From: Bugulina stolonifera
Taxonomy: Eukaryota; Bryozoa; Gymnolaemata; Cheilostomatida; Bugulidae
DNA: 64,000 nucleotides
NCBI GenBank assembly: GCA_935421135.1
Contig: OW285189.1
Span: 10,871,072-10,935,071 of the forward strand
Reading direction: 5' to 3'
Positions 3,501 through 64,000 of this stretch are shown piece by piece. The notes under the pieces were generated by a model. The model was not told the origin of the DNA. It did not search any database and saw only the letters and a list, made by a program, of their open reading frames with translations. The position numbers and the translations under genes are program-made. Position 1 is the stretch's first letter. Each line of letters starts with the position of its first letter.

Positions 3501-6500
3501 ACTTGTACAGTTTGTACAATATGTAGCTGTACTTGTACAGTTTGTACATGTACCTGTACTTGTATAGTTTGTACACATGCCTGTACTTGTATACTCGTAG
3601 TTTGTACCTGTACTTGTATAGTTTGTACATGTACCTGTACTTGTATAGTTTGTACAATATGTAGCTGTACTTGTATAGTTTGTACCTGTACCTGTACTTG
3701 TATAGTTTGTACATGTACCTGTACTTGTATAGCTTGTACATGTACCTGTACCTTTACTTGTATAGTTTGTACATGTACCTGTTATTGTGAAGATTAGTTT
3801 CAGTCTTCCACCAATTCTCTAGTTCCTTTTCACTTGGTTTCCAGCATTTCTTGTCTCGAGCACTTTTCCATGCAACCACTTTGTGTATCTCACCATTAGC
3901 TAATGACACACAGATACGAGCAAGTTAACAACGCATGAGTCACCATGAGAATATTCTCATATTGTTGCAAAGTAATAATTATTTAGAGGCTTTCTTTCTT
4001 TGTCAGATATCAAATGATTCAAATAAAAAATATATTTTAGCGTTCTGAAGCACTTTACACTTAAAGTGTTCAAATTTACATTGTGTATTCGTTGTACATG
4101 TACATGTACATGTACATGTAATGGTGCCAGCACGCAGACTTCTTGCATTGCATTACTAAGTCTGCGCTTTTATTGACATGAATTGAATTTCAAGCTCTCA
4201 AGTCCCAACAGTGAGCACACATGTTTATATGAGTGCAGCACTTGTTAGGTGTAGTAGTGGAGAAATTAGAATGCCCTTAGCTTCTTGTTTCTGGTTGAGG
4301 TAGCAGCAGTTAGCCAATAAAATATAGAGAAGACAACTCCTACTGCTTCAGCTTTGGCGGAGAACAGAGGCTATTTAAAATTTCTCCACTTTTACACCTA
4401 CATGTAAGCTGAGTGTATCGTATTGCAGCTACTTGATAAAGTCTCACAGAAATATGCCAAGGATTGAATTTTAGAGCAAACAGAGAGGATAACTCTAAAT
4501 TATAATCAATAGCCTCATGGTGTATGACGCTAGAAATACCTTGTACGTTGTTACCTAATACTAAAACAAATGGTTCATTATAATAATTAGAAGAAAATGT
4601 AGAACTAACCAGTAGCCAAGTAGAGTATAGTAGTATCATCAGATGTCTTCTCAGCTTGTATTTTATCATACTGAGCATCAATTGATGTCAATATTGGTTC
4701 TGAACCAACACTTCTCCACATTGTCCTTGACCCTGTAAGACAGAATTCAGCCATCTGTTCAAAAACACCAGCAAGACAACTAAATAAAAATATTATTTTG
4801 TAATATATTACATGTAACATGTACATCTATCTAGGCCCGTCTCGGTATCTAGCAATCATAAAATAATTATTATTCCGTTGTTATTGTTTTTAGTAAAATC
4901 TTCCCTAGCCCTACAACATGTAGTTACTATATACAACAAAATTTTCATGGTTCATTATCTTATATTATACAATGTATCCCCATATACAAGCATGTTCTAC
5001 ACAATGTATACAAATGTACTACCTTCTACGTCCTTTTCGAAGAAGTTTAGCCGACTAGATCGGCTTCGCATATCAAAGTTATGTAACTCCTTTTCTAGGG
5101 GTAGAGTTTCGTCTGTGAATTCTATATCCATTTCCTTTATGCTTCTTGCTTCTAGTGAGACAGGGTCAGGTAGACACTTATAGGGAAGAAACAAGTTATA
5201 TATAAAGCTATATTATACATCATGGAGCCACACAAATAGTTATATAAAACCTCGTATACGACACTAACGCAATGGTGGAAAATGGCTAATTTTCAAAATA
5301 TTGTCCATGCGCATGCAACTGTCTAACAACAAGATAAAAATATCAACAATCCAGAAATCACAAAAGTTATTCTTACCGATGCATCTATCAGGAAAACTAA
5401 GTTAAGTGAGTAAGGACTAGGTGTTATATATATGTACTTACTGAGTAAGGACTAGGTGTTATATATATGTACTTACTGAGTAAGGACTAGGTGTTATATA
5501 TATGTACTTACTGAGTAAGGACTAGGTGTTATATATATGTACTTACTGAGTAAGGACTAGGTGTTATATATATGTACTTACTGAGTAAGGACTAGATGTT
5601 ATATATATGTACTTACTGAGTAAGGATTAGGTGTTATATATATGTACTCACTGAGTAAGGACTAGGTGTTATATATATGTACTTACTGAGTAAGGACTAG
5701 GTGTTATATATATGTACTTACTGAGTAAGGACTAGGTGTTATATATATGTACATACTGAGTAAGGACTAGGTGTTATATATATGTACATACTGAGTAAGG
5801 ACTAGGTGTTATATATATGTACTTACTGAATAAGGACTAGTAGGTGTTATACATATGTACTTACTGAGTAAGGACTAGGTGTTATATATATGTACTTACT
5901 GAGTAAGGACTAGGTGTTATATATATGTACTTACTGAGTAAGGACTAGGTGTTATATATATGTACTCACTGAGTAAGGACTAGGTGTTATATATATGTAC
6001 TTACTGAGTAAGGACTAGGTGTTATATATATGTACTTACTGAGTAAGGACTAGGTGTTATATATATGTACTTACTGAGTAAGGACTAGGTGTTATATATA
6101 TGTACTTACTGAGTAAGGACTAGGTGTTATATATATAAATGTACTTATTGAGTAAGGACTAGGTGTTACATATATGTACTCACTGAGTAAGGACTAGTAG
6201 GTGTTATATATATGTACTTACTGAGTAAGGACTAGGTGTTATATATATGTACTTACTGAGTAAGGACTAGGTGTTATATATATGTACTTACTGAGTAAGG
6301 ACTAGGTGTTATATATATGTACTTACTGAGTAAGGACTAGTAGGTGTTATATATAAATGTACTTATTGAGTAAGGACTAGGTGTTACATATATGTACTCA
6401 CTGAGTAAGGACTAGTAGGTGTTATATAAATGTACTTATTGAGTAAGGACTAGGTGTTATATATATGTACTTACTGAGTAAGGACTAGGTGTTATATATA

Positions 6501-9500
6501 TGTACTTACTGAGTAAGGACTAGGTGTTATATATATAAATGTACTTATTGAGTAAGGACTAGGTGTTACATATATGTACTCACTGAGTAAGGACTAGTAG
6601 GTGTTATATATATGTACTTACTGAGTAAGGACTAGGTGTTATTTATATGTACTTACTGAGTAAGGACTAGGTGTTATATATATGTACTTACTGAGTAAGG
6701 ACTAGGTGTTATATATATGTACTTACTGAGTAAGGACTAGGTGTTATATATATGTACTTACTGAGTAAGGACTAGATGTTATATATATGTACTTACTGAG
6801 TAAGGACTAGGTGTTATATATATGTACTTACTGAGTAAGGACTATATGTTATATATATAAATGTACTTATTGAGTAAGGACTAGGTGTTATATAAATGTA
6901 CTTACTGAGTAAGGACTAGGTGTTATATATATGTACATACTGAGTAAGGACTAGGTGTTATATATATAAATGTACTTATTGAGTAAGGACTAGGTGTTAC
7001 ATATATGTACTCACTGAGTAAGGACTAGTAGGTGTTATATATATGTACTTACTGAGTAAGGACTAGGTGTTATATATATGTACTTACTGAGTAAGGACTA
7101 GGTGTTATATATATGTACTTACTGAGTAAGGACTAGATGTTATATATATAAATGTACTTATTGAGTAAGGACTAGGTGTTACATATATGTACTCACTGAG
7201 TAAGGACTAGTAGGTGTTATATATATGTACTTACTGAGTAAGGGCTAGGTGTTATATATATATGTACTTAGTGAGTAAGGACTAGGTGTTATATATAAGT
7301 ACTTACTGAGTAAGGACTAGGTGTTATATATATAAATGTACTTATTGAGTAAGGACTAGGTGTTACATATATGTACTCACTGAGTAAGGACTAGTAGGTG
7401 TTATATATATGTACTTACTGAGTAAGGGCTAGGTGTTATATATATATGTACTTAGTGAGTAAGGACTAGGTGTTATATATAAGTACTTACTGAGTAAGGA
7501 CTAGATGTTATATATATAAATGTACTTATTGAGTAAGGACTAGGTGTTACGTAAGGACTAGTAGGTGTTATATATATGTACTTACTGAGTAAGGGCTAGG
7601 TGTTATACATATATGTACTTAGTGAGTAAGGACTAGGTGTTATATATATGTACTTACTGAGTAAGGACTGGGTGTTATATATTATATGTACTTACTGAGT
7701 AAGGGCTAGGTGTTATATATACATGTATATGTACTCACTGAGTAAGGATTAGGTGTTATATATATGTACATACTGAGTAAGGACTAGGTGTTACATATAT
7801 GTACTTACTGAGTAAAGACTAGGTGTTATATATATGTACTTACTGAGTAAGGGCTAGGTGTTATGCCATCTCCTTCTGTGTTTGGATCATAAGGTCTCCA
7901 CGCATTGTTCATTCTCTTCTTAAATGGACCATTGAAGGCCTCCTTAATGTCCTCCATGGTAAACTGGCATACGGCAGAACCAGCTGGTAGCTGTGAATGT
8001 GGGCTGACAGACTCACTGTAAACCATAGGTACTTCAATTCAGCGTATTGCAATAAAATGGTAACAAAGTCAAAAAACTTTCCAGTAGAGTATCATACAAC
8101 AGACACTGTGCTGTTATCTGTGAATAAAAAATATATAATATATTGCACATTCTTGCTGTTTGCATAAAGAAAGAGGTAGTAATGCAATACAGTTTTACAG
8201 CATAACAGCCTCAAAGTATGTGCTTCCAACTTACCTGTGAGGACTAGAGAACAATCCATAGATTATATCTCCAACTTTATATAAATCTTCTGCAAAATAC
8301 AGTTATTATGATAACATATACATGTATATGGTACACATACGTGTACATAGACAATTCATCGCACAATATTAATATTATACATGTATAATACATGTACATG
8401 TTGTAGCCTATATATTACATTGTATTGGAGTTGTCTACTCGGGAGTGGTAAAAGAGAAGACAACTTTTAATTAGAAGTTGACTAATGAGAAGGCAACTTC
8501 CACATGCATCAAAATAGACTATATTGTAATAAAATTAAAGAAAGATCAATTTTTATACATTATATAATATTGTATAATAATTTATATAATACATAGTATT
8601 ATATATTATCATGTCATACTATTACACTTATATATTTATTACAATATTATATGGTTATTACTTACTCAATTCTGTGTATTCATATGATACTGAGCTATAG
8701 GTAGGAAAGTCCCTCTTATAAGCCCAGTGGTACTGTGAGTATCCACTCACTACTTTCTGGAAGAGTCCGTTTGGGTTTATATAGTCAAAGTGTCTAGTTG
8801 TGTAATCGAGAAAAGCTCTAAATGAGACATCTCGTCCTTTCAAATTTCGCTCACAAAACACTCCTCTATTCGGTGCTACAACATGAGATGAATTAATAGT
8901 CATTAAATATCAGAAGATATGTGATCAAATACACAAAATAAAATGTTCTTATACATTAGACAGCTATAAATGCATCATAACATGGCTACTAGCGAGCTAA
9001 GGTGAGGACAGCTTCACAATTTCATCAACTGATTAAAACCATAATTTACCATGCAAGATGTCATAAGTTATAGCTAACTTGAATTTTACCGGTAGATACT
9101 CATGCACACAATTTTATACATGCCAGGTGTAGGTGTAAGTGTAGTTGTAGGTGTAGTTGTAGATGTAGGTGTAGGTATACATGTAGGTTTATAATCTAAT
9201 TCACATAGCCGACACCTACATCATGCACCTACAGCCATTCAGCCACTCACTGAGTCAACATGCACTCAATGAGTGGCTGAACACCAAGTGGAGTTTACAT
9301 GTAGAATTAAACACTCTGTTACATTATACTGCAATGTTAGCTATAATACATAGACAACTGAGAGATGTTGCTTGACAACTGATGAACAGAAGAGGTGTTT
9401 ATGTCAGTTGGTGAAATATATGTCATGAACTGGATATGAAATAAAAGTTGTTCGGATGGCAACAAGAGTGCAGTGCCCTAAACTCATGGTAATAGAAATC

Positions 9501-32646: not shown

Positions 32647-39304
<6,658 letters not shown>

Positions 39305-55626: not shown

Positions 55627-56106
55627 ATTACAATTATAATACTAGATAAGCATTTGACAGTATAATATTGACTTTGTGTAAATGAGCAATATAGTAACAT
55701 GGGTAGTTAGTTTAGCCTAGGTTCCAAACCCCTTTAAACTTGTATGGTATAATTGTTATATTGAGCGGTCGGGCGTCAAAGGGCACAGAAAGCATGCTAA
55801 AATTTTGGTAAACTTACAATTGTAAATGAAAATGGTTCACAACTACTCCACATAACTGCTATTTGTTCACATAAATAGACATTTGCTGGGAAACTCCATA
55901 GAACTGTGGCGCCATATGTCTAAGTGTTGTGTATATCAATATGTACAGTAGCATATTTACCCATGGCACACTTATAGTAATGAAGAGCTCTCCCCAAATA
56001 TTTTTGTTTTATAAAATTAACTAAAGATTAACAAAATAACTTGTCAATAATTTCCTGTGTAAACATTGGTTCCAGAGTTGAATAGAAGACATGAGCTTAC
56101 TGTTAA
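55627..56106. other. Unique left flank of the giant palindrome
   Basis: AT-rich DNA with no coding signal; unrelated to the right flank (63,712-64,000). This places the palindrome as an insertion and not a large inverted duplication of the locus. Confidence 0.6.
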
Positions 56107-56110
56107 TCAG
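56107..56110. repeat. Left target-site duplication TCAG
   Basis: TCAG directly abuts the first base of the terminal inverted repeat (TAGTAGTATAGTCAG at 56111) and is matched by TCAG at 63708-63711. Outward from it the flanks no longer match. Confidence 0.6.
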
Positions 56111-56829
56111 TAGTAGTATAGTCAGTGCAGATCTACACAGACACCCGGCCCTTTCCGCGTCGTATTAGCCCTAGATCCAAAAACTCCCCGGGCGGACGAC
56201 CACCCCACCCGTCCTCTCGCCCCTCCTCTCCCCTAAACCTCACTCTATGTGCAAAGCCCTAGAACCTACTCCCCCCCATCGCGGGTGGGGTTTCAAAAAC
56301 CTCATCGGCTGTTCCGTAGAACCCAGTCTAAAGAGCAAACCCCTCGCCCCGTCCCACGGCTCGGGCGAGGGGGCGCGCGCGTACGCGCGCGCCCCCCCGC
56401 CCCGCGAACCCCACCCGTCCTCCCTCCACCCGTCCCCGCCCCTCCCCACCCCTCCCCACCCCAAACCCCTCCGCCTCGCCCTCCGCCTCGCGGCGGTTCT
56501 CGTTCGCGAGTCCAGCCGTGGCCCCACGCCGCCGTCCCCCCGCCCATCCCCCGCCCCTCCCCCGCTCTCCCGCCCCAACGACCCGTCGCGGCCCTCGCGG
56601 GCGGACCGTCGGCTGGAGTAGGGTGAAGCGAAGGAAAATACGGGTTAGAGTAATGATATCCGGCTATGAAAAACGTGAGCGAGGGTAATGGTACACGAAT
56701 TTGTTTTAAATTTCAATACGTTTGAGAGTAATAGTACGGTGAAGCGAAGAAAAATACGGGTTGGAGTAATGATAGGGTACGCCCGTGCGGAGTGCCCGTG
56801 CAGAGTTTACGACGCTGACTATACTACTA
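56111..56829 (+). mobile_element. Left 719-bp end module with its own inverted ends
   Basis: Starts TAGTAGTATAGTCAG and ends CTGACTATACTACTA (56815-56829), so the module is itself bounded by 15-bp inverted repeats. 56,150-56,620 is extremely GC-rich against an AT-rich genome and includes the 20-bp palindrome of alternating GC around GTAC at 56373-56392 (Z-DNA-prone). Open frames here on both strands are by-products of GC richness. 56,640-56,800 holds two near copies of a GTGAAGCGAAG...AATACGGGTT stretch. Confidence 0.85.
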
Positions 56830-56984
56830 TAAGAAACTTACCGAGTGATGGTGGTGGTGCTTCCGGATGATTTCTTCGCCGGGGACTGTTGAGACTGAAC
56901 TGGTCGGGGTGACACCGCACTCGCGCGCTCCTCCGTTCGAGCGCCCCCGGACCTCCGATGAAAGACTCGCGCCTTAACCCTCAT

Positions 56985-57159
56985 TTCCCCCGGACCCTCC
57001 CCTAGGGAAATCGCCCGTCCCCGTGACGAGCGGCGAGGGAAAGTGAAGGCGGTGGCTCTTTCGCGCTTCAAACCGTAGACCTCGCGAGGTGGTTCGCCGG
57101 CGACATCCTCGCTCGGAGGGGTAGAAATAGATAAATGGAATAAATGGATGGCTGTCTTC

Positions 57160-57192
<33 letters not shown>

Positions 57193-57419
57193 ACATCATC
57201 ATCATCCTACAAATAGACCCGCCTCCACGATGATGTCGTTGACTCCCCACCAATTTCTTCGACCACCGCGTCCACTTTCCCCCGGGTAGCAAACTCCGAT
57301 AGGGAGAGAGCGCATCGTGCGCGTGCGATGTCACCCCCCACCTACGAATGAAGACGATAGAAGAAATGTGAACTGATAAGGGGTGAGTATGAGTGGAAGT
57401 TGCGCTAGTACCGTCTACC
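56985..57419. other. Segment present only in the left arm
   Basis: The left arm has about 430 bp here that the right arm lacks; the right-arm junction is near 62,830 (AAACCAGGGAAACGAGGG). The segment contains a CAT/TCA microsatellite (57158-57205) and GC-rich coding-like sequence on the minus strand. It may be an insertion on the left or a deletion on the right. Confidence 0.8.
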
Positions 57420-57721
57420 CCTCTGGTTTGGCGAGGTAAATGGTTTTTAATGTATTAGCTAGTGTTTTATTGCTCGGTTTTAAGGTTACAACCGGTAAAC
57501 CCTCCGTTTTGAGGACGGAGACCCCTTACAATAGAGAGTGAATGTGAAGAAAAATATACGGGTATATGTACAAGGGTTATGTTGCACTGTTCGTTTACTC
57601 TCCAATTTATCGAATGAAGTAGTCTCATCTCCGAGAAATCAGTACTAGCATTCTATAGGACTCGTACTCACCCCGTCTTCTGCAACCTTCCGCTTACCAT
57701 AGAGGTAGGTGAGTCCGGTCT

Positions 57722-57869
57722 TTAGCTGGGTGTAGCTATACGTTTGGTTTCCTCTTCTGATAAATTTTTATCTTTTCGGATGAGCGCATCTATACTACGA
57801 GCACTCAGGGCCATGTAAGCGCTATCCGTGTCCATTTCTACGTACTCAAACTCCTCTCTGCTGACGAAT
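57722..57869 (-). pseudogene. Family-B DNA polymerase fragment (left arm)
   Basis: Minus-strand copy of the fragment at 62382-62529: acceptor TATTTTCACAG, then an exon containing FEYVEMDTDSAYMALS and ending in TAA. Same 148-nt length as the right-arm copy. Confidence 0.6.
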
Positions 57870-57949
57870 CTGTGAAAATAAAATGGACGGGTTGGAGGGT
57901 GCTGACACCGAAGAATAAATAGAGAAGGATTTGATAAAATCTTTGTGTA

Positions 57950-59690
57950 GTCTAGTTCTACTCATCTATCCATATGTGTACACATGTTAAAATACCTTTA
58001 TATAATAGTTCAAACACAATTGAATGAATAAAAGACACATATCTAAAGGAGTATGTCATAGCTATTATTAGCAAGAAAAGACTGTGTGCATGTGTTAAGT
58101 CAGCATACATAATACATTAAATAAGCTTTTCACAATAGTAGCGATAGAATAAATAAAAGGTTGTATGCATGTGTTAAGTCAGCATTATGTAATTCATTAA
58201 ATAAACTTTTCACAATAGTAGCAATAGAATATATAAAAGGTTGTATGCATGTGTTAAGTCAGCATTATGTAATACATTAAATAAACTTTTTACAATACTA
58301 GCAATAGAATGAATAAATGTGTACACATGGTAAAATACCATTATATAATAATTTAAACACAATTGAATGAATAAAACGCACATATATGTATAGGAGTATG
58401 GCATACCTATTATTAGCAAGAAAAGGCTGTGTGCATGTGTTAAGTCAGCATATATAATACATTAAATAAACTTTTCACAAAGTCAGCATAATATATAATA
58501 CATTAAATAAACTTTTCACAATAGTAGCAATAGAATAAATAAAAGGTTGTGTGCATGTGTTAAGTCAGCATTATGTAATTCATTAAATAAACTTTTCACA
58601 ATAGTAGCAATAGAATAAATAAAAGATTGTGTACACATGTTAAAATACCATTATATAATAATTTAAACACAATTGAATGAATAAAAGGCACATATGTAAA
58701 GGAGTATGACATACCTATTATTAGCAAGAAAAGGCTGTGTGCATGTGTTAAGTCAGCATATATAATACATTAAATAAACTTTTCACAAAGTCAGCATAAG
58801 ATATAATACATTAAATAAACTTTTCACAATAGTAGCAATAGAATAAATAAAGGGTTGTGTGCATGTGTTAAGTCAGCATTATGTAATTCATTAAATAAAC
58901 TTTTCACAATAGTAGCTATAGAATAAATAAAAGAGTGTGTACACAAGTTAAAATACCTTTATATAATAATTTAAACACAATTGAAAGAATAGGCTGTGTG
59001 CATGTGTTAAGTCAGCATATATAATGGATTAAATAAGCTTTTCACATAAAATACCTTTATATAATAATTTAAACACAGTTGAAAGAATAGGCTGTGTGCA
59101 TGTGTTAAGTCAGCATATATAATAGATTAAATAAGCTTTTCACATACCTATTATTAGCAAGAAAAGGCAGTGTGCATGTGTTAAGTCAGCATATATAATA
59201 GATTAAATAAGCTTTTCACAATAGTAGCAATAGAATAAATAAAAGGTTGTGTGCATGTGTTAAGTCAGCATTATGTAATTCATTAAATAAACTTTTCACA
59301 ATAGTAGCAATAGAATAAATAAAAGATTGTGTACACATGTTGAAATACCTTTATATAATAGATTAAATAAGCTTTTCACATACCTATTATTAGCAAGAAA
59401 AGGCTGTGTGCATGTGTTAAGTCAGCATATATAATAGATTAAATAAGCTTTTCACAATAGTAGCAATAGAATAAATAAAAGGTTGTGTGCATGTGTTAAG
59501 TCAGCATTATGTAATTCATTAAATAAACTTTTCACAATAGTAGCAATAGAATAAATAAAAGATTGTGTACACATGTTAAAATACCTTTATATAATAATTT
59601 AAACACAATTGAAAGAATAGGCTGTGTGCATGTGTTAAGTCAGCATATATAATAGATTAAATAAGCTTTTCAATAGTAGGTAGGTGTCAC
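57950..59690. repeat. AT-rich mosaic tandem array, left arm
   Basis: Irregular units of about 80-100 bp built from GTGTGCATGTGTTAAGTCAG, TTAAATAAACTTTTCACA and GCAATAGAATAAATAAAAG blocks, shuffled and partly deleted. The mirror array in the right arm is about 400 bp shorter, so copy number has changed independently since the palindrome formed. Confidence 0.9.
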
Positions 59691-59937
59691 TGTTTTAGTC
59701 TCCCTATAATAAATATAAAGTAGCAGGGTGTAAGTAATTTTTTAGCTTGATAGCATTATATACAATAAACACTTCACAATTGCTGCCAATTACCCTATTT
59801 AGCACTAACCTTATGTTCTACTTGTTGAAATCTCTGATCAGGTGCTGACTAGTAGGTAGCTGTCTCTGTTTTAGTCTCACTCTGTTGACTAGAGGCTGAT
59901 TGTACATACTGCTAGAGTGAGAAACTCATACCTTAAA

Positions 59938-60697
59938 TAGTAGTATTCAGTAGGCGGAGTCTAACCATTTCCCCACCCTTTGCAATACCACCCGATGCGT
60001 CCCGATGTGAATCCGAAGCCTCCCGATGCACCCCGATGCGAATCCGAAGCCTCCCGATGCACCCCGATGCGAATCCGAAGCCTCCCGATGCACCCCGATG
60101 TGAATCCGAAGCCTCCCGATGCACCCCGATGCGAATCCGAAGCCTCCCGATGCACCCCGATGTGAATCCGAAGCCTCCCGATGCACCCCGATGTGAATCC
60201 GAAGCCTCCCGATGCGAATCCGAAGCCTCCCGATGCACCCCGATGTGAATCCGAAGCTTCCCGATGCACCCCGATGCGAATCCGAAGCCTCCCGATGCAT
60301 CCCGATGTGCCCCGATGTGTCAAATCACATCGGGGTGCATCGGGTTACATCGGGATGCATCGGGAAGCTTCGGATTCACATCGGGGTGCATCGGGAGGCT
60401 TCGGATTCGCATCGGGGTGCATCGGGAGGCTTCGGATTCACATCGGGGTGCATCGGGATGCTTCGGATTCACATCGGGGTGCATCGGGAGGCTTCGGATT
60501 CGCATCGGGGTGCATCGGGAGGCTTCGGATTCACATCGGGGTGCATCGGGAGGCTTCGGATTCGCATCGGGGTGCATCGGGAGGCTTCGGATTCGCATCG
60601 GGGTGCATCGGGAGGCTTCGGATTCACATCGGGACGCATCGGGGTGGTATTGCAAAGGGTGGGGAAATGGTTAGACTCCGCCTACTGAATACTACTA
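59938..60697. repeat. Central 760-bp palindrome of about 31-bp repeats
   Basis: Bounded by TAGTAGTATTCAG (59938-59950) and CTGAATACTACTA (60685-60697), clearly related to the outer termini of the whole element. Inside, about ten CCCGATGCACCCCGATG...AATCCGAAGCCT units run one way and about ten the other way, meeting at TCAAAT (60320-60325). Frames open on both strands (RGASGGFGF, SEASRCTPM and others) reflect the period, not genes. It looks like a smaller related element nested at the centre. Confidence 0.9.
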
Positions 60698-60954
60698 TTT
60701 AAGGTATGAGTTTCTCACTCTAGCAGTATGTACAATCAGCCTCTAGTCAACAGAGTGAGACTAAAACAGAGACAGCTACCTACTAGTCAGCACCTGATCA
60801 GAGATTTCAACAAGAAGAACATAAGGTTAGTGCTAAATAGGGTAATTGGCAGCAATTGTGAAGTGTTTATTGTATATAATGCTATCAAGCTAAAAAATTA
60901 CTTACACCCTGCTACTTTATATTTATTATAGGGAGACTAAAACAGTGACACCTA

Positions 60955-62280
60955 CCTACTATTGAAAAGCTTATTTAATCTATTATATATGCTGACTTAA
61001 CACATGCACACAGCCTATTCTTTCAATTGTGTTTAAATTATTATATAAAGGTATTTTAACATGTGTACACAATCTTTTATTTATTCTATTGCTACTATTG
61101 TGAAAAGTTTATTTAATGAATTACATAATGCTGACTTAACACATGCACACAACCTTTTATTTATTCTATTGCTACTATTGTGAAAAGCTTATTTAATCTA
61201 TTATATATGCTGACTTAACACATGCACACAGCCTTTTCTTGCTAATAATAGGTATGTGAAAAGCTTATTTAATCTATTATATAAAGGTATTTCAACATGT
61301 GTACACAATCTTTTATTTATTCTATTGCTACTATTGTGAAAAGTTTATTTAATGAATTACATAATGCTGACTTAACACATGCACACAACCTTTTATTTAT
61401 TCAATTGCTACTATTGTGAAAAGCTTATTTAATCTATTATATATGCTGACTTAACACATGCACACAGCCTATTCTTTCAACTGTGTTTAAATTATTATAT
61501 AAAGGTATTTTATGTGAAAAGCTTATTTAATCTATTATATATGCTGACTTAACACATGCACACAGCCTATTCTTTCAATTGTGTTTAAATTATTATATAA
61601 AGGTATTTTAACATGTGTACACACTCTTTTATTTATTCTATAGCTACTACTGTGAAAAGTTTATTTAATGAATTACATAATGCTGACTTAACACATGCAC
61701 ACAACCCTTTATTTATTCTATTGCTACTATTGTGAAAAGTTTATTTAATGTATTATATCTTATGCTGACTTTGTGAAAAGTTTATTTAATGTATTATATA
61801 TGCTGACTTAACACATGCACACAGCCTTTTCTTGCTAATAATAGGTATGCCATACTCCTATACATATATGTGCGTTTTATTCATTCAATTGTGTTTAAAT
61901 TATTATATAATGGTATTTTACCATGTGTACACATTTATTCATTCTATTGCTAGTATTGTAAAAAGTTTATTTAATGTATTACATAATGCTGACTTAACAC
62001 ATGCATACAACCTTTTATATATTCTATTGCTACTATTGTGAAAAGTTTATTTAATGAATTACATAATGCTGACTTAACACATGCATACAACCTTTTATTT
62101 ATTCTATCGCTACTATTGTGAAAAGCTTATTTAATGTATTATGTATGCTGACTTAACACATGCACACAGTCTTTTCTTGCTAATAATAGCTATGACATAC
62201 TCCTTTAGATATGTGTCTTTTATTCATTCAATTGTGTTTGAACTATTATATAAAGGTATTTTAACATGTGTACACATATG
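60955..62280. repeat. AT-rich mosaic tandem array, right arm
   Basis: Inverted counterpart of 57,950-59,690, with the same blocks in complement (GACTTAACACATGCACACA) but fewer units. A 69-codon open frame is preserved identically in both arms (58210-58419 minus, 61832-62041 plus); it contains array blocks and has no family signature. Confidence 0.9.
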
Positions 62281-62381
62281 GATAGATGAGTAGAACTAGA
62301 CTACACAAAGATTTTATCAAATCCTTCTCTATTTATTCTTCGGTGTCAGCACCCTCCAACCCGTCCATTTTATTTTCACAG

Positions 62382-62529
62382 ATTCGTCAGCAGAGAGGAG
62401 TTTGAGTACGTAGAAATGGACACGGATAGCGCTTACATGGCCCTGAGTGCTCGTAGTATAGATGCGCTCATCCGAAAAGATAAAAATTTATCAGAAGAGG
62501 AAACCAAACGTATAGCTACACCCAGCTAA
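62382..62529 (+). pseudogene. Family-B DNA polymerase fragment with DTDS motif (right arm)
   Basis: Downstream of a pyrimidine tract and TTTTCACAG acceptor, 48 codons read FVSREEFEYVEMDTDSAYMA then LSARSIDALIRKDKN and stop at TAA (62527-62529). MDTDSAY matches motif C of family-B DNA polymerases (Y.DTDS), which holds two metal-binding aspartates; I judge it closer to protein-primed/mobile-element versions. Exonuclease, motif A and motif B are absent from the window. In another frame the next stretch reads TQLKTGLTYLYGKRKVAEDG, suggesting a frameshift shortly before the stop. Described only as a relic. Confidence 0.6.
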
Positions 62530-62988
62530 AGACCGGACTCACCTACCTCTATGGTAAGCGGAAGGTTGCAGAAGACGGGGTGAGTACGAGTCCTATAGAA
62601 TGCTAGTACTGATTTCTCGGAGATGAGACTACTTCATTCGATAAATTGGAGAGTAAACGAACAGTGCAACATAACCCTTGTACATATACCCGTATATTTT
62701 TCTTCACATTCACTCTCTATTGTAAGGGGTCTCCGTCCTAAAAACGGAGGGTTTACCGGTTGTAACCTTAAAACCGAGCAATAAAACACTAGCTAATACA
62801 TTAAAAACCATTTACCTCGCCAAACCAGGGAAACGAGGGTTAAGGCGCGAGTCTTTCATCGGAGGTCCGGGGGGCGCTCGAACGGAGGAGCGCGCGAGTG
62901 CGGTGTCACCCCGACCAGTTCAGTCTCAACAGTCCCCGGCGAAGAAATCATCCGGAAGCACCACCACCACCACTCGGTAAGTTTCTTA

Positions 62989-63707
62989 TAGTAGTATAGT
63001 CAGCGTCGTAAACTCTGCACGGGCACTCCGCACGGGCGTACCCTATCATTACTCCAACCCGTATTTTTCTTCGCTTCACCGTACTATTACTCTCAAACGT
63101 ATTGAAATTTAAAACAAATTCGTGTACCATTACCCTCGCTCACGTTTTTCATAGCCGGATATCATTACTCTAACCCGTATTTTCCTTCGCTTCACCCTAC
63201 TCCAGCCGACGGTCCGCCCGCGAGGGCCGCGACGGGTCGTTGGGGCGGGAGAGCGGGGGAGGGGCGGGGGATGGGCGGGGGGACGGCGGCGTGGGGCCAC
63301 GGCTGGACTCGCGAACGAGAACCGCCGCGAGGCGGAGGGCGAGGCGGAGGGGTTTGGGGTGGGGAGGGGTGGGGAGGGGCGGGGACGGGTGGAGGGAGGA
63401 CGGGTGGGGTTCGCGGGGCGGGGGGGCGCGCGCGTACGCGCGCGCCCCCTCGCCCGAGCCGTGGGACCGGGCGAGGGGTTTGCTCTTTAGACTGGGTTCT
63501 ACGGAACAGCCGATGAGGTTTTTGAAACCCCACCCGCGATGGGGGGGAGTAGGTTCTAGGGCTTTGCACATAGAGTGAGGTTTAGGGGAGAGGAGGGGCG
63601 AGAGGACGGGTGGGGTGGTCGTCCGCCCGGGGAGTTTTTGGATCTAGGGCTAATACGACGCGGAAAGGGCCGGGTGTCTGTGTAGATCTGCACTGACTAT
63701 ACTACTA
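62989..63707 (-). mobile_element. Right 719-bp end module
   Basis: Exactly the same length as the left module and inverted, with inner end TAGTAGTATAGTCAG (62989-63003) and outer end CTGACTATACTACTA (to 63707). Only a few substitutions separate the two (for example CCCCGTCCC against CCCGGTCCC). Just inside it CACTCG/GTAAGTTTC looks like a splice donor at the end of a coding-like GC-rich stretch (62,835-62,980). Confidence 0.85.
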
Positions 63708-63711
63708 TCAG
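63708..63711. repeat. Right target-site duplication TCAG
   Basis: Abuts the right terminus at 63707; see the left copy at 56107. Confidence 0.6.
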
Positions 63712-64000
63712 TCAATGAATGTGTTATTTGCCTTTTGAGACTGACACTACTAGGTATGTGAATTAGAACTGAAAAAACTGTTTAATAGAATTCACAAAAC
63801 TCTTTGGTATACTTTGATGCTCTTTTGATCTCTAATTTAGGAATATTTATTAGGATGTGTTTGAATGGATGAGGGAATGTTTTAATTAGCCAAATGAAAA
63901 ATTCCTCGGAATAAAAGGAGTTTATTAATTTGACACATTTTCAAATATTCCTCATGATCTATAATTGAATACATCTATCTGCACATGTAGCCCTATATAG
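63712..64000. other. Right flank, no feature
   Basis: AT-rich unique DNA; I see nothing in it. Confidence 0.6.

What the first reader, a model, noticed from the sequence alone, without database searches (positions are those of the whole stretch)
56111..63707. Unrecognised 7.6-kb giant palindromic transposon
Seen: two arms of 4.2 and 3.4 kb in inverted orientation with a 6-nt spacer at the centre, precise TAGTAGTATAGTCAG termini, and TCAG on both outer sides with unrelated flanks. Inference: a mobile fold-back element with a 4-bp target duplication. Length, composition and the cargo below do not fit classic Foldback elements (9-bp duplication), Polintons (6-bp) or ordinary MITEs.
Basis: partly seen in the sequence, partly recalled or inferred. 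Interest (0 to 1): 0.85.

Follow-up and report, generated by a model that had tools for sequence, protein, structure and literature searches.

The report
Palindromic satellite of a split Polinton
The 7.6-kb mirror-image element is a degenerate satellite of a virus-like Polinton family whose polymerase and capsid genes seem to sit on separate, independently inserting pieces of DNA, an unusual arrangement for such elements.

Summary
The palindrome is real (56112-63706; aligned arm positions 99.4% identical) and mobile. Exact 6-bp duplications flank 20 of 21 elements tested. The genome holds 891+890 copies of the 14-bp terminus; a family-specific arm 32-mer occurs 69 times, 62 of them as 31 inverted pairs. 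Larger elements share the termini: A (9.65 kb) carries a family-B DNA polymerase and an RPA/POT1-like protein; B (10.86 kb) carries a capsid protein, ATPase and integrase; C (9.1-9.6 kb) has one long frame of unknown kind. A and B share a 1.4-kb central region (91%). None of 37 scored polymerase genes lies within 20 kb of any of 92 scored capsid genes, though both lists are capped. The window element is an inverted duplication of A's polymerase end. Another palindrome, L041, whose junction sequence occurs once in the genome, shows a clean copy-back junction within A. Best reading: a snap-back, defective-genome-like satellite of a Polinton split over separately integrating elements. Copy-back formation and mutual dependence are inferred, not shown.

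The parts
56106..56111 (.). left target-site duplication ATCAGT
56112..63706 (.). whole palindromic element, 7595 bp
63707..63712 (.). right target-site duplication ATCAGT
56112..56828 (+). left end module, 717 bp; its first 547 bp match the end of element A at 99.1%; inverted copy of the terminus at its inner edge (56815-56828)
62990..63706 (-). right end module, 717 bp, inner terminus copy at 62990-63003
56733..57764 (+). left-arm stretch matching element A (L044 605-1648) at 95.1%
56990..57423 (+). 434-bp block present in the left arm, absent from the right arm
57722..57961 (-). open frame with the remnant of a DNA polymerase B exon
   Evidence: Pfam alone gave no match
62290..62529 (+). 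mirror copy of the polymerase-exon remnant
58076..59679 (.). AT-rich satellite, left arm (period about 80 bp)
60956..62277 (.). AT-rich satellite, right arm
59674..59914 (.). stretch matching the central region of element A (L044 6217-6464, 90%); partly also B (L045 918-1136, 92.8%)
59991..60643 (.). 31-bp satellite in inverted arrangement, shared with A and B
60310..60335 (.). central 10-bp hairpin with 6-nt spacer; A and B carry a near-identical centre

Best explanation
The feature is a non-autonomous palindromic derivative of a Polinton (Maverick) family whose gene set is spread over separately integrating elements. Element A carries the DNA polymerase and a predicted ssDNA-binding-type protein; B carries capsid, ATPase and integrase; C carries a long frame of unknown kind. 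The palindrome probably arose when the polymerase, copying A inward from its polymerase end by strand displacement, reached the inverted satellite of the central region and copied back along its own new strand, giving a molecule with the same replication end twice. It lost most coding sequence, acquired satellite repeats, and was amplified and integrated with enzymes supplied by A and B. Shown: structure, 6-bp duplications, derivation from A's end, copy number, and separation of polymerase and capsid genes among the scored copies. Inferred: the snap-back event, supply in trans by A and B, and any packaging.
For: 6-bp duplications at 20 of 21 elements, shuffled pairing 0.95. Arms match A at 99.1, 95.1, 88.8 and 90.0% over four stretches; the polymerase-exon remnant lies in all 18 palindrome loci holding that stretch. 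A: DNA_pol_B_2 2.3e-6, just above cut-off. B: rve 2e-11 with Chromo, Pox_A32 1.4e-6, capsid by fold. Shared termini and a shared central region. 0 of 34 A-type but 14 of 50 B/C-type intervals hold a scored capsid gene. L041 is A to 4199, then A from 6089 backwards, its junction found once. In the window family the turn lies at the hairpin that A also has.
Against: No replication, integration or packaging was observed. The window family is not remade each time: the 434-bp gap recurs in 5 of 34 arms and arms within an element are only slightly closer by median, not by mean. L020 has arms 4.1% apart. The lists behind the gene separation are capped (37 of 524 and 92 of 272 candidates scored), and two capsid hits lie 13.7 and 16.9 kb from a polymerase-exon hit; the first pair belongs to separate listed elements, the second was not resolved. 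Where integrase copies lie did not complete.
Confidence: 0.7

Rival explanations
1. A and B are not parts of one virus: A is a polymerase transposon that lost its capsid genes, B a Polinton that lost its polymerase; they share ends and each uses the other's enzymes. Helper and satellite, or mutual parasites, rather than a segmented genome. The palindromes would still be satellites.
For: Polintons lacking MCP, protease and ATPase together are on record (PMC4028283, passage), and polymerase-less virus insertions in protists too (PMC10120064, passage). TIRs of A and B differ beyond the first 18 bp and a few further bases.
Against: Both elements are in many near-identical uninterrupted copies (92 of 92 scored capsid hits, 37 of 37 scored polymerase hits), so neither looks decayed, and they share 1.4 kb of central sequence with a common coding start.
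Confidence: 0.3
2. The palindromes arose by recombination in the chromosome between A copies inserted in opposite orientation, or by end-to-end fusion of two linear molecules, not by copy-back.
For: Oppositely oriented polymerase genes 8.6 and 12.1 kb apart exist. Arm chimeras such as L020 show that recombination happens.
Against: 17 tested palindromes have flanking duplications (16 exact, one with an extra AGT), as for integration of a finished molecule. The centre of the window family falls on a hairpin already present in A. L041 joins two inner positions of A (4199 and 6089) with at most a base or so of shared sequence by eye. L041's own right end was not fetched, so its duplication is untested.
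Confidence: 0.2
3. Assembly artefact or local rearrangement.
For: Palindromes are prone to misassembly, and only one assembly was available.
Against: 31 inverted pairs of differing length at different places, and different flanks and duplications at the 17 palindromes tested.
Confidence: 0.02

Closest known systems
Polintons/Mavericks (Polintoviricetes, Eupolintoviridae, adintoviruses)
   Same: 6-bp duplications, long TIRs, family-B polymerase, rve integrase with chromodomain, packaging-type ATPase, double-jelly-roll-type capsid by fold
   Different: Described as single elements, 15-20 kb in PMC4028283 (passage); here the genes are on separate 9-11 kb elements and there are palindromic derivatives
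Snap-back defective genomes of AAV (PMC8235507, abstract and outline)
   Same: Inverted duplication of one genome end carrying a partial replication gene
   Different: Parvovirus with a different replication mode; not integrated, amplified families
Bidnaviridae (PMC4061559, abstract; PMC11071296, passage)
   Same: Divided DNA genomes with a Polinton-derived PolB and terminal repeats
   Different: Small ssDNA viruses with parvovirus capsid and helicase
Foldback (FB) elements
   Same: Long inverted arms rich in tandem repeats (recalled)

Membership tests
Polinton/Maverick (as a non-autonomous member) | 6-bp target-site duplication | tested here: met
   Window ATCAGT; 20 of 21 elements exact; figure of 6 bp for rve integrases from PMC12220804, passage
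Polinton/Maverick (as a non-autonomous member) | long terminal inverted repeats starting 5'-AG (start recalled) | tested here: met
   AGTAGTATAG at both ends
Polinton/Maverick (as a non-autonomous member) | derived from an element with protein-primed PolB | tested here: met
   Exon remnant and arm stretches match A, whose frame has DNA_pol_B_2; protein priming itself is not testable here
Polinton/Maverick (A plus B plus C) | rve integrase | tested here: met
   B copy L046 66-1142: rve 2e-11, Chromo 1.2e-6; only one B copy read
[quoted passage not shown]
   No Pfam or PDB sequence match; model pLDDT 83.6, best PDB fold match PBCV-1 capsid 1.6e-18, mavirus 1.2e-15
Polinton/Maverick (A plus B plus C) | cysteine protease | tested here: inconclusive
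   Peptidase_C5 E 0.14, below cut-off; viral cysteine protease in PDB E 0.12
Polinton/Maverick (A plus B plus C) | polymerase, integrase and capsid on one element | tested here: not met
   A and B copies read lack each other's genes; none of 37 scored polymerase genes within 20 kb of 92 scored capsid genes; capped lists
Foldback / transposons with 4-bp duplication | 9-bp or 4-bp target-site duplication | tested here: not met
   6 bp
Bidnaviridae | parvovirus-type capsid and superfamily 3 helicase | tested here: not met
   Capsid fold matches double-jelly-roll proteins; no helicase family above cut-off among the ORFs sent to Pfam; not every ORF was sent
Snap-back defective genome (works like) | duplicated genome end joined by one copy-back junction | tested here: met
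   L041: A to 4199, then A from 6089 backwards
Snap-back defective genome (works like) | replicates and spreads with a helper | not testable with these tools
   only integrated copies seen

The most novel reading that the evidence does not exclude
A multipartite Polinton virus: at least three linear segments (replication; capsid plus integration; unknown) that integrate independently with 6-bp duplications, share termini and, for A and B, a central common region, and throw off heritable snap-back palindromes that persist as satellites in the host genome.
Probability: 0.5. Interest if true: 0.92.

Novelty: new variant of a known kind. Interest (0 to 1): 0.8.

Why it matters
The passages read describe Polintons as single self-synthesising elements. 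A family with its polymerase on one element and its integrase and capsid on another, each in many near-identical uninterrupted copies, would be a divided double-stranded DNA relative of that group and a natural case of mutual dependence. The palindromes would be replication errors kept as integrated fossils; L041 gives a base-level junction from which the copy-back step can be studied in a genome rather than in a virus preparation.

Tried and rejected
A 4-bp duplication and filing under Foldback were rejected: the ends of 21 elements give 6 bp. The idea that each palindrome is made afresh was rejected for the window family, because the 434-bp gap is shared by several loci. The 39-kb pair L009-L012 was first suspected to be the autonomous partner; it is a palindrome copy with about 31 kb of other DNA inside, whose largest frame is 182 aa and was not searched against families. 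The 13.6-13.9-kb size class (3 of 50 B/C-type pairs) was suspected to be unipartite; one copy holds a capsid gene, its sequence could not be fetched, and it stays open. Extra AGT triplets as a sign of adenovirus-like jumping back (PMC4974454, passages): 48 of 1371 ends against a rough chance figure of 20-30 of my own; the window copy is one of the 48 and is explained by its duplication; inconclusive. Viral contigs: 43 and 170 pattern matches, none confirmed as a relative. The organism could not be named; source names among PolB relatives include Holothuria, Asterias, Patiria, Branchiostoma, Porites and Exaiptasia. Literature: of ten searches, eight concerned Polintons; no listed title, abstract start or opened passage reported a divided or palindromic Polinton. 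Only open-licence papers are held, the adintovirus paper asked for was not, and Repbase was not available.
Full report
What is there. The arms, cut at 60317/60318, align over 3377 positions at 99.41%; the right arm lacks blocks of 434, 308, 76 and 11 bp (coordinates of the outer blocks). A perfect 10-bp hairpin with a 6-nt spacer (60310-60335) lies in an inverted array of a 31-bp repeat (59991-60643), flanked by AT-rich satellites. The element is 56112-63706. The duplication is ATCAGT, 6 bp, not TCAG.

It is a family. A search with the end module gave 40 full-length matches scored of 681 candidates. I fetched regions for 15 apparent pairs, one long pair and one lone end. Fourteen of the 15, and the lone end, proved to be inverted pairs of 6.8-8.5 kb; the fifteenth, L027, has two ends in the same orientation. 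A 32-mer specific to this family's arms occurs 69 times: 31 inverted pairs, two of them stretched to 14 and 38 kb, and 7 singles. Exact 6-bp duplications flank 16 of 17 palindromes and 4 of 4 larger elements tested; shuffled pairing gives 0.95 matches on average. The exception, L023, has TATGTG on both sides if one extra AGT at its left end is allowed.

What it derives from. The arms keep a piece of a polymerase exon (EYVEMDTDSAYM; that this is polymerase motif C is recalled). The same exon occurs at 91% over 43 residues in other open frames, mostly 202-228 aa long (150 of 393 candidates scored). L042, L043 and L044 show such exons beside the same terminus. Element A (L044) is 9.65 kb with TIRs of about 545 bp, identical to each other, and duplication TCCATA. 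It has a 1238-aa frame with DNA_pol_B_2 (2.3e-6, 27.2 bits against a cut-off of 25.8) and zinc-finger matches below cut-off, the exon, and frames of 191 and 256 aa. The 256-aa protein, modelled from its relative P0161 and one other sequence at pLDDT 69.8, matches RPA and POT1 chains best (E 1.6e-5, but TM-scores only 0.17-0.20), so ssDNA binding is a guess from fold. The window arm matches A at 100-646 (99.1%), 605-1648 (95.1%), 1992-2214 (88.8%) and 6217-6464 (90.0%).

The other elements. Element B (L045 and L046, 10.86 kb, duplication AACCAT) has no tblastn match to A's polymerase. It has a 359-aa rve integrase with chromodomain and a 225-aa frame matching Pox_A32. Its 461-aa frame has no Pfam match and no PDB sequence match. 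A relative identical over the aligned part (P0001; 97% of the query) was modelled at pLDDT 83.6. Best fold matches are viral capsids: BFVD best 1.9e-27 to a protein listed under a bracovirus, with a poor TM-score of 0.36, the next ones 0.6; PDB PBCV-1 1.6e-18, mavirus 1.2e-15. The protease call is weak, and frames of 245, 451, 195, 147 and 134 aa stay unidentified. Element C (L047 9.57 kb, L048 9.09 kb; duplications AACACG and AACAAT) has B's TIR (99% in L047, 92-94% in L048) and a 485-aa frame with no convincing family. A and B share about 1.4 kb in the middle at 90.9%, including a 112-aa coding start at 96%.

How the pieces are distributed. The 14-base terminus occurs 891+890 times (controls 0 and 1), the A-type end 182+177, the B/C-type end 271+279. 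The first 100 B/C-type ends listed form 50 adjacent inverted pairs: 18 between 10.55 and 10.89 kb, 10 between 9.5 and 9.6 kb, the rest from 8.4 to 17.2 kb. Of 64 polymerase-exon hits on C1-C3, 49 lie in A-type pairs, 4 in two B/C-type pairs that hold the exon piece twice and inverted, and 11 outside the listed pairs. All 92 capsid hits scored (272 candidates) are uninterrupted frames listed at 100% identity. Fourteen of 50 B/C-type intervals hold one, 12 of them in the class of 18, and 0 of 34 A-type intervals; on C1 and C2, 13 of 16 capsid hits lie in listed B/C-type pairs. All 37 polymerase hits scored (524 candidates) are uninterrupted and listed at 100%; none lies within 20 kb of a scored capsid gene, the nearest being 49.9 kb away. 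Against the 73 longer-type exon hits, 5 of 92 capsid genes lie within 60 kb; the two closest are at 13.7 kb, in a separate listed element, and at 16.9 kb on C4, which I could not resolve. Within these subsets polymerase and capsid are on different elements.

How the palindrome may form. L041 starts as A, runs to A position 4199, then continues as A from 6089 backwards; its arms are 3.76 kb at 99.5%. The junction 34-mer occurs once in the genome. This is what a polymerase would leave that turned back on its own strand. Two more pairs on C1 carry the 601-bp module at both ends with one exon hit each; their middles could not be fetched. In the window family the turn lies at a hairpin that A also has. 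Later the family was copied as a unit: the 434-bp gap recurs in 5 of 34 arms, and arms within an element are closer than random pairing by median (0.14 against 0.24%, 0.001 of 5000 shuffles as low) but not by mean (0.47 against 0.40%; 0.72 of shuffles as low), unless L020 and L025 are set aside (0.19 against 0.25%; 0.002). Mobilisation by A's polymerase and B's integrase is inferred from shared ends and equal duplications. The AGTAGT terminus recalls the GTAGTA template of adenovirus jumping back (PMC4974454, passages), but a count test was inconclusive.

What is known. rve integrases give 6-bp duplications (PMC12220804, passage). Polintons are described as 15-20 kb elements with PolB, integrase, ATPase and protease, and nine of those surveyed lacked MCP, protease and ATPase together (PMC4028283, passages). 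Many protist virus insertions lack a detectable polymerase (PMC10120064, passage). Divided genomes with a Polinton-type PolB are known in bidnaviruses (PMC4061559, abstract; PMC11071296, passage), and snap-back defective genomes in AAV (PMC8235507, abstract and outline). Eight literature searches on Polintons showed no report of a Polinton split into separately inserting elements or of palindromic Polinton families, in an open-licence library and mostly from titles and the starts of abstracts.

Judgement. The window element is, with high confidence, a non-autonomous member of a Polinton family. That the family is multipartite rather than a pair of mutually dependent or parasitic elements is about an even bet, and copy-back is the best supported of several routes to the palindrome.

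Noticed in passing
window 35633-35881: 24-bp GC-rich tandem repeat, 10.4 copies with 100% matches, in an AT-rich region.
   Followed up: no
window 5407-7864: 35-bp satellite array of about 68.6 copies.
   Followed up: no
L009 2622 to L012 3738: About 31 kb of other DNA, partly tandem arrays, inside a palindrome copy whose outer duplication ACTGCG still matches.
   Followed up: partly
window 56815-56828 and 62990-63003; L044 687-700: An inverted second copy of the terminus 601 bp (A) or 717 bp (window family) inside the polymerase end; in the stretch of C1 examined each such module belonged to an A or palindrome (20 of 20). Unexplained.
   Followed up: partly
G000 C1:17537468-17546033 and C3:2413203-2421575: Elements with B/C-type ends that hold the polymerase-exon piece twice and inverted, so a second kind of palindrome may exist.
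   Followed up: no
G000, capsid and polymerase copies: All 92 scored capsid and all 37 scored polymerase hits are uninterrupted and listed at 100% identity, so the burst is very recent or copies are kept alike.
   Followed up: partly
L047 6329-7783 and L048 1852-3309: Element C's 485-aa frame of unknown kind, 99% identical between the two copies.
   Followed up: partly
L020: A palindrome whose two arms differ by 4.1% and resemble arms of different other loci: a chimera.
   Followed up: no
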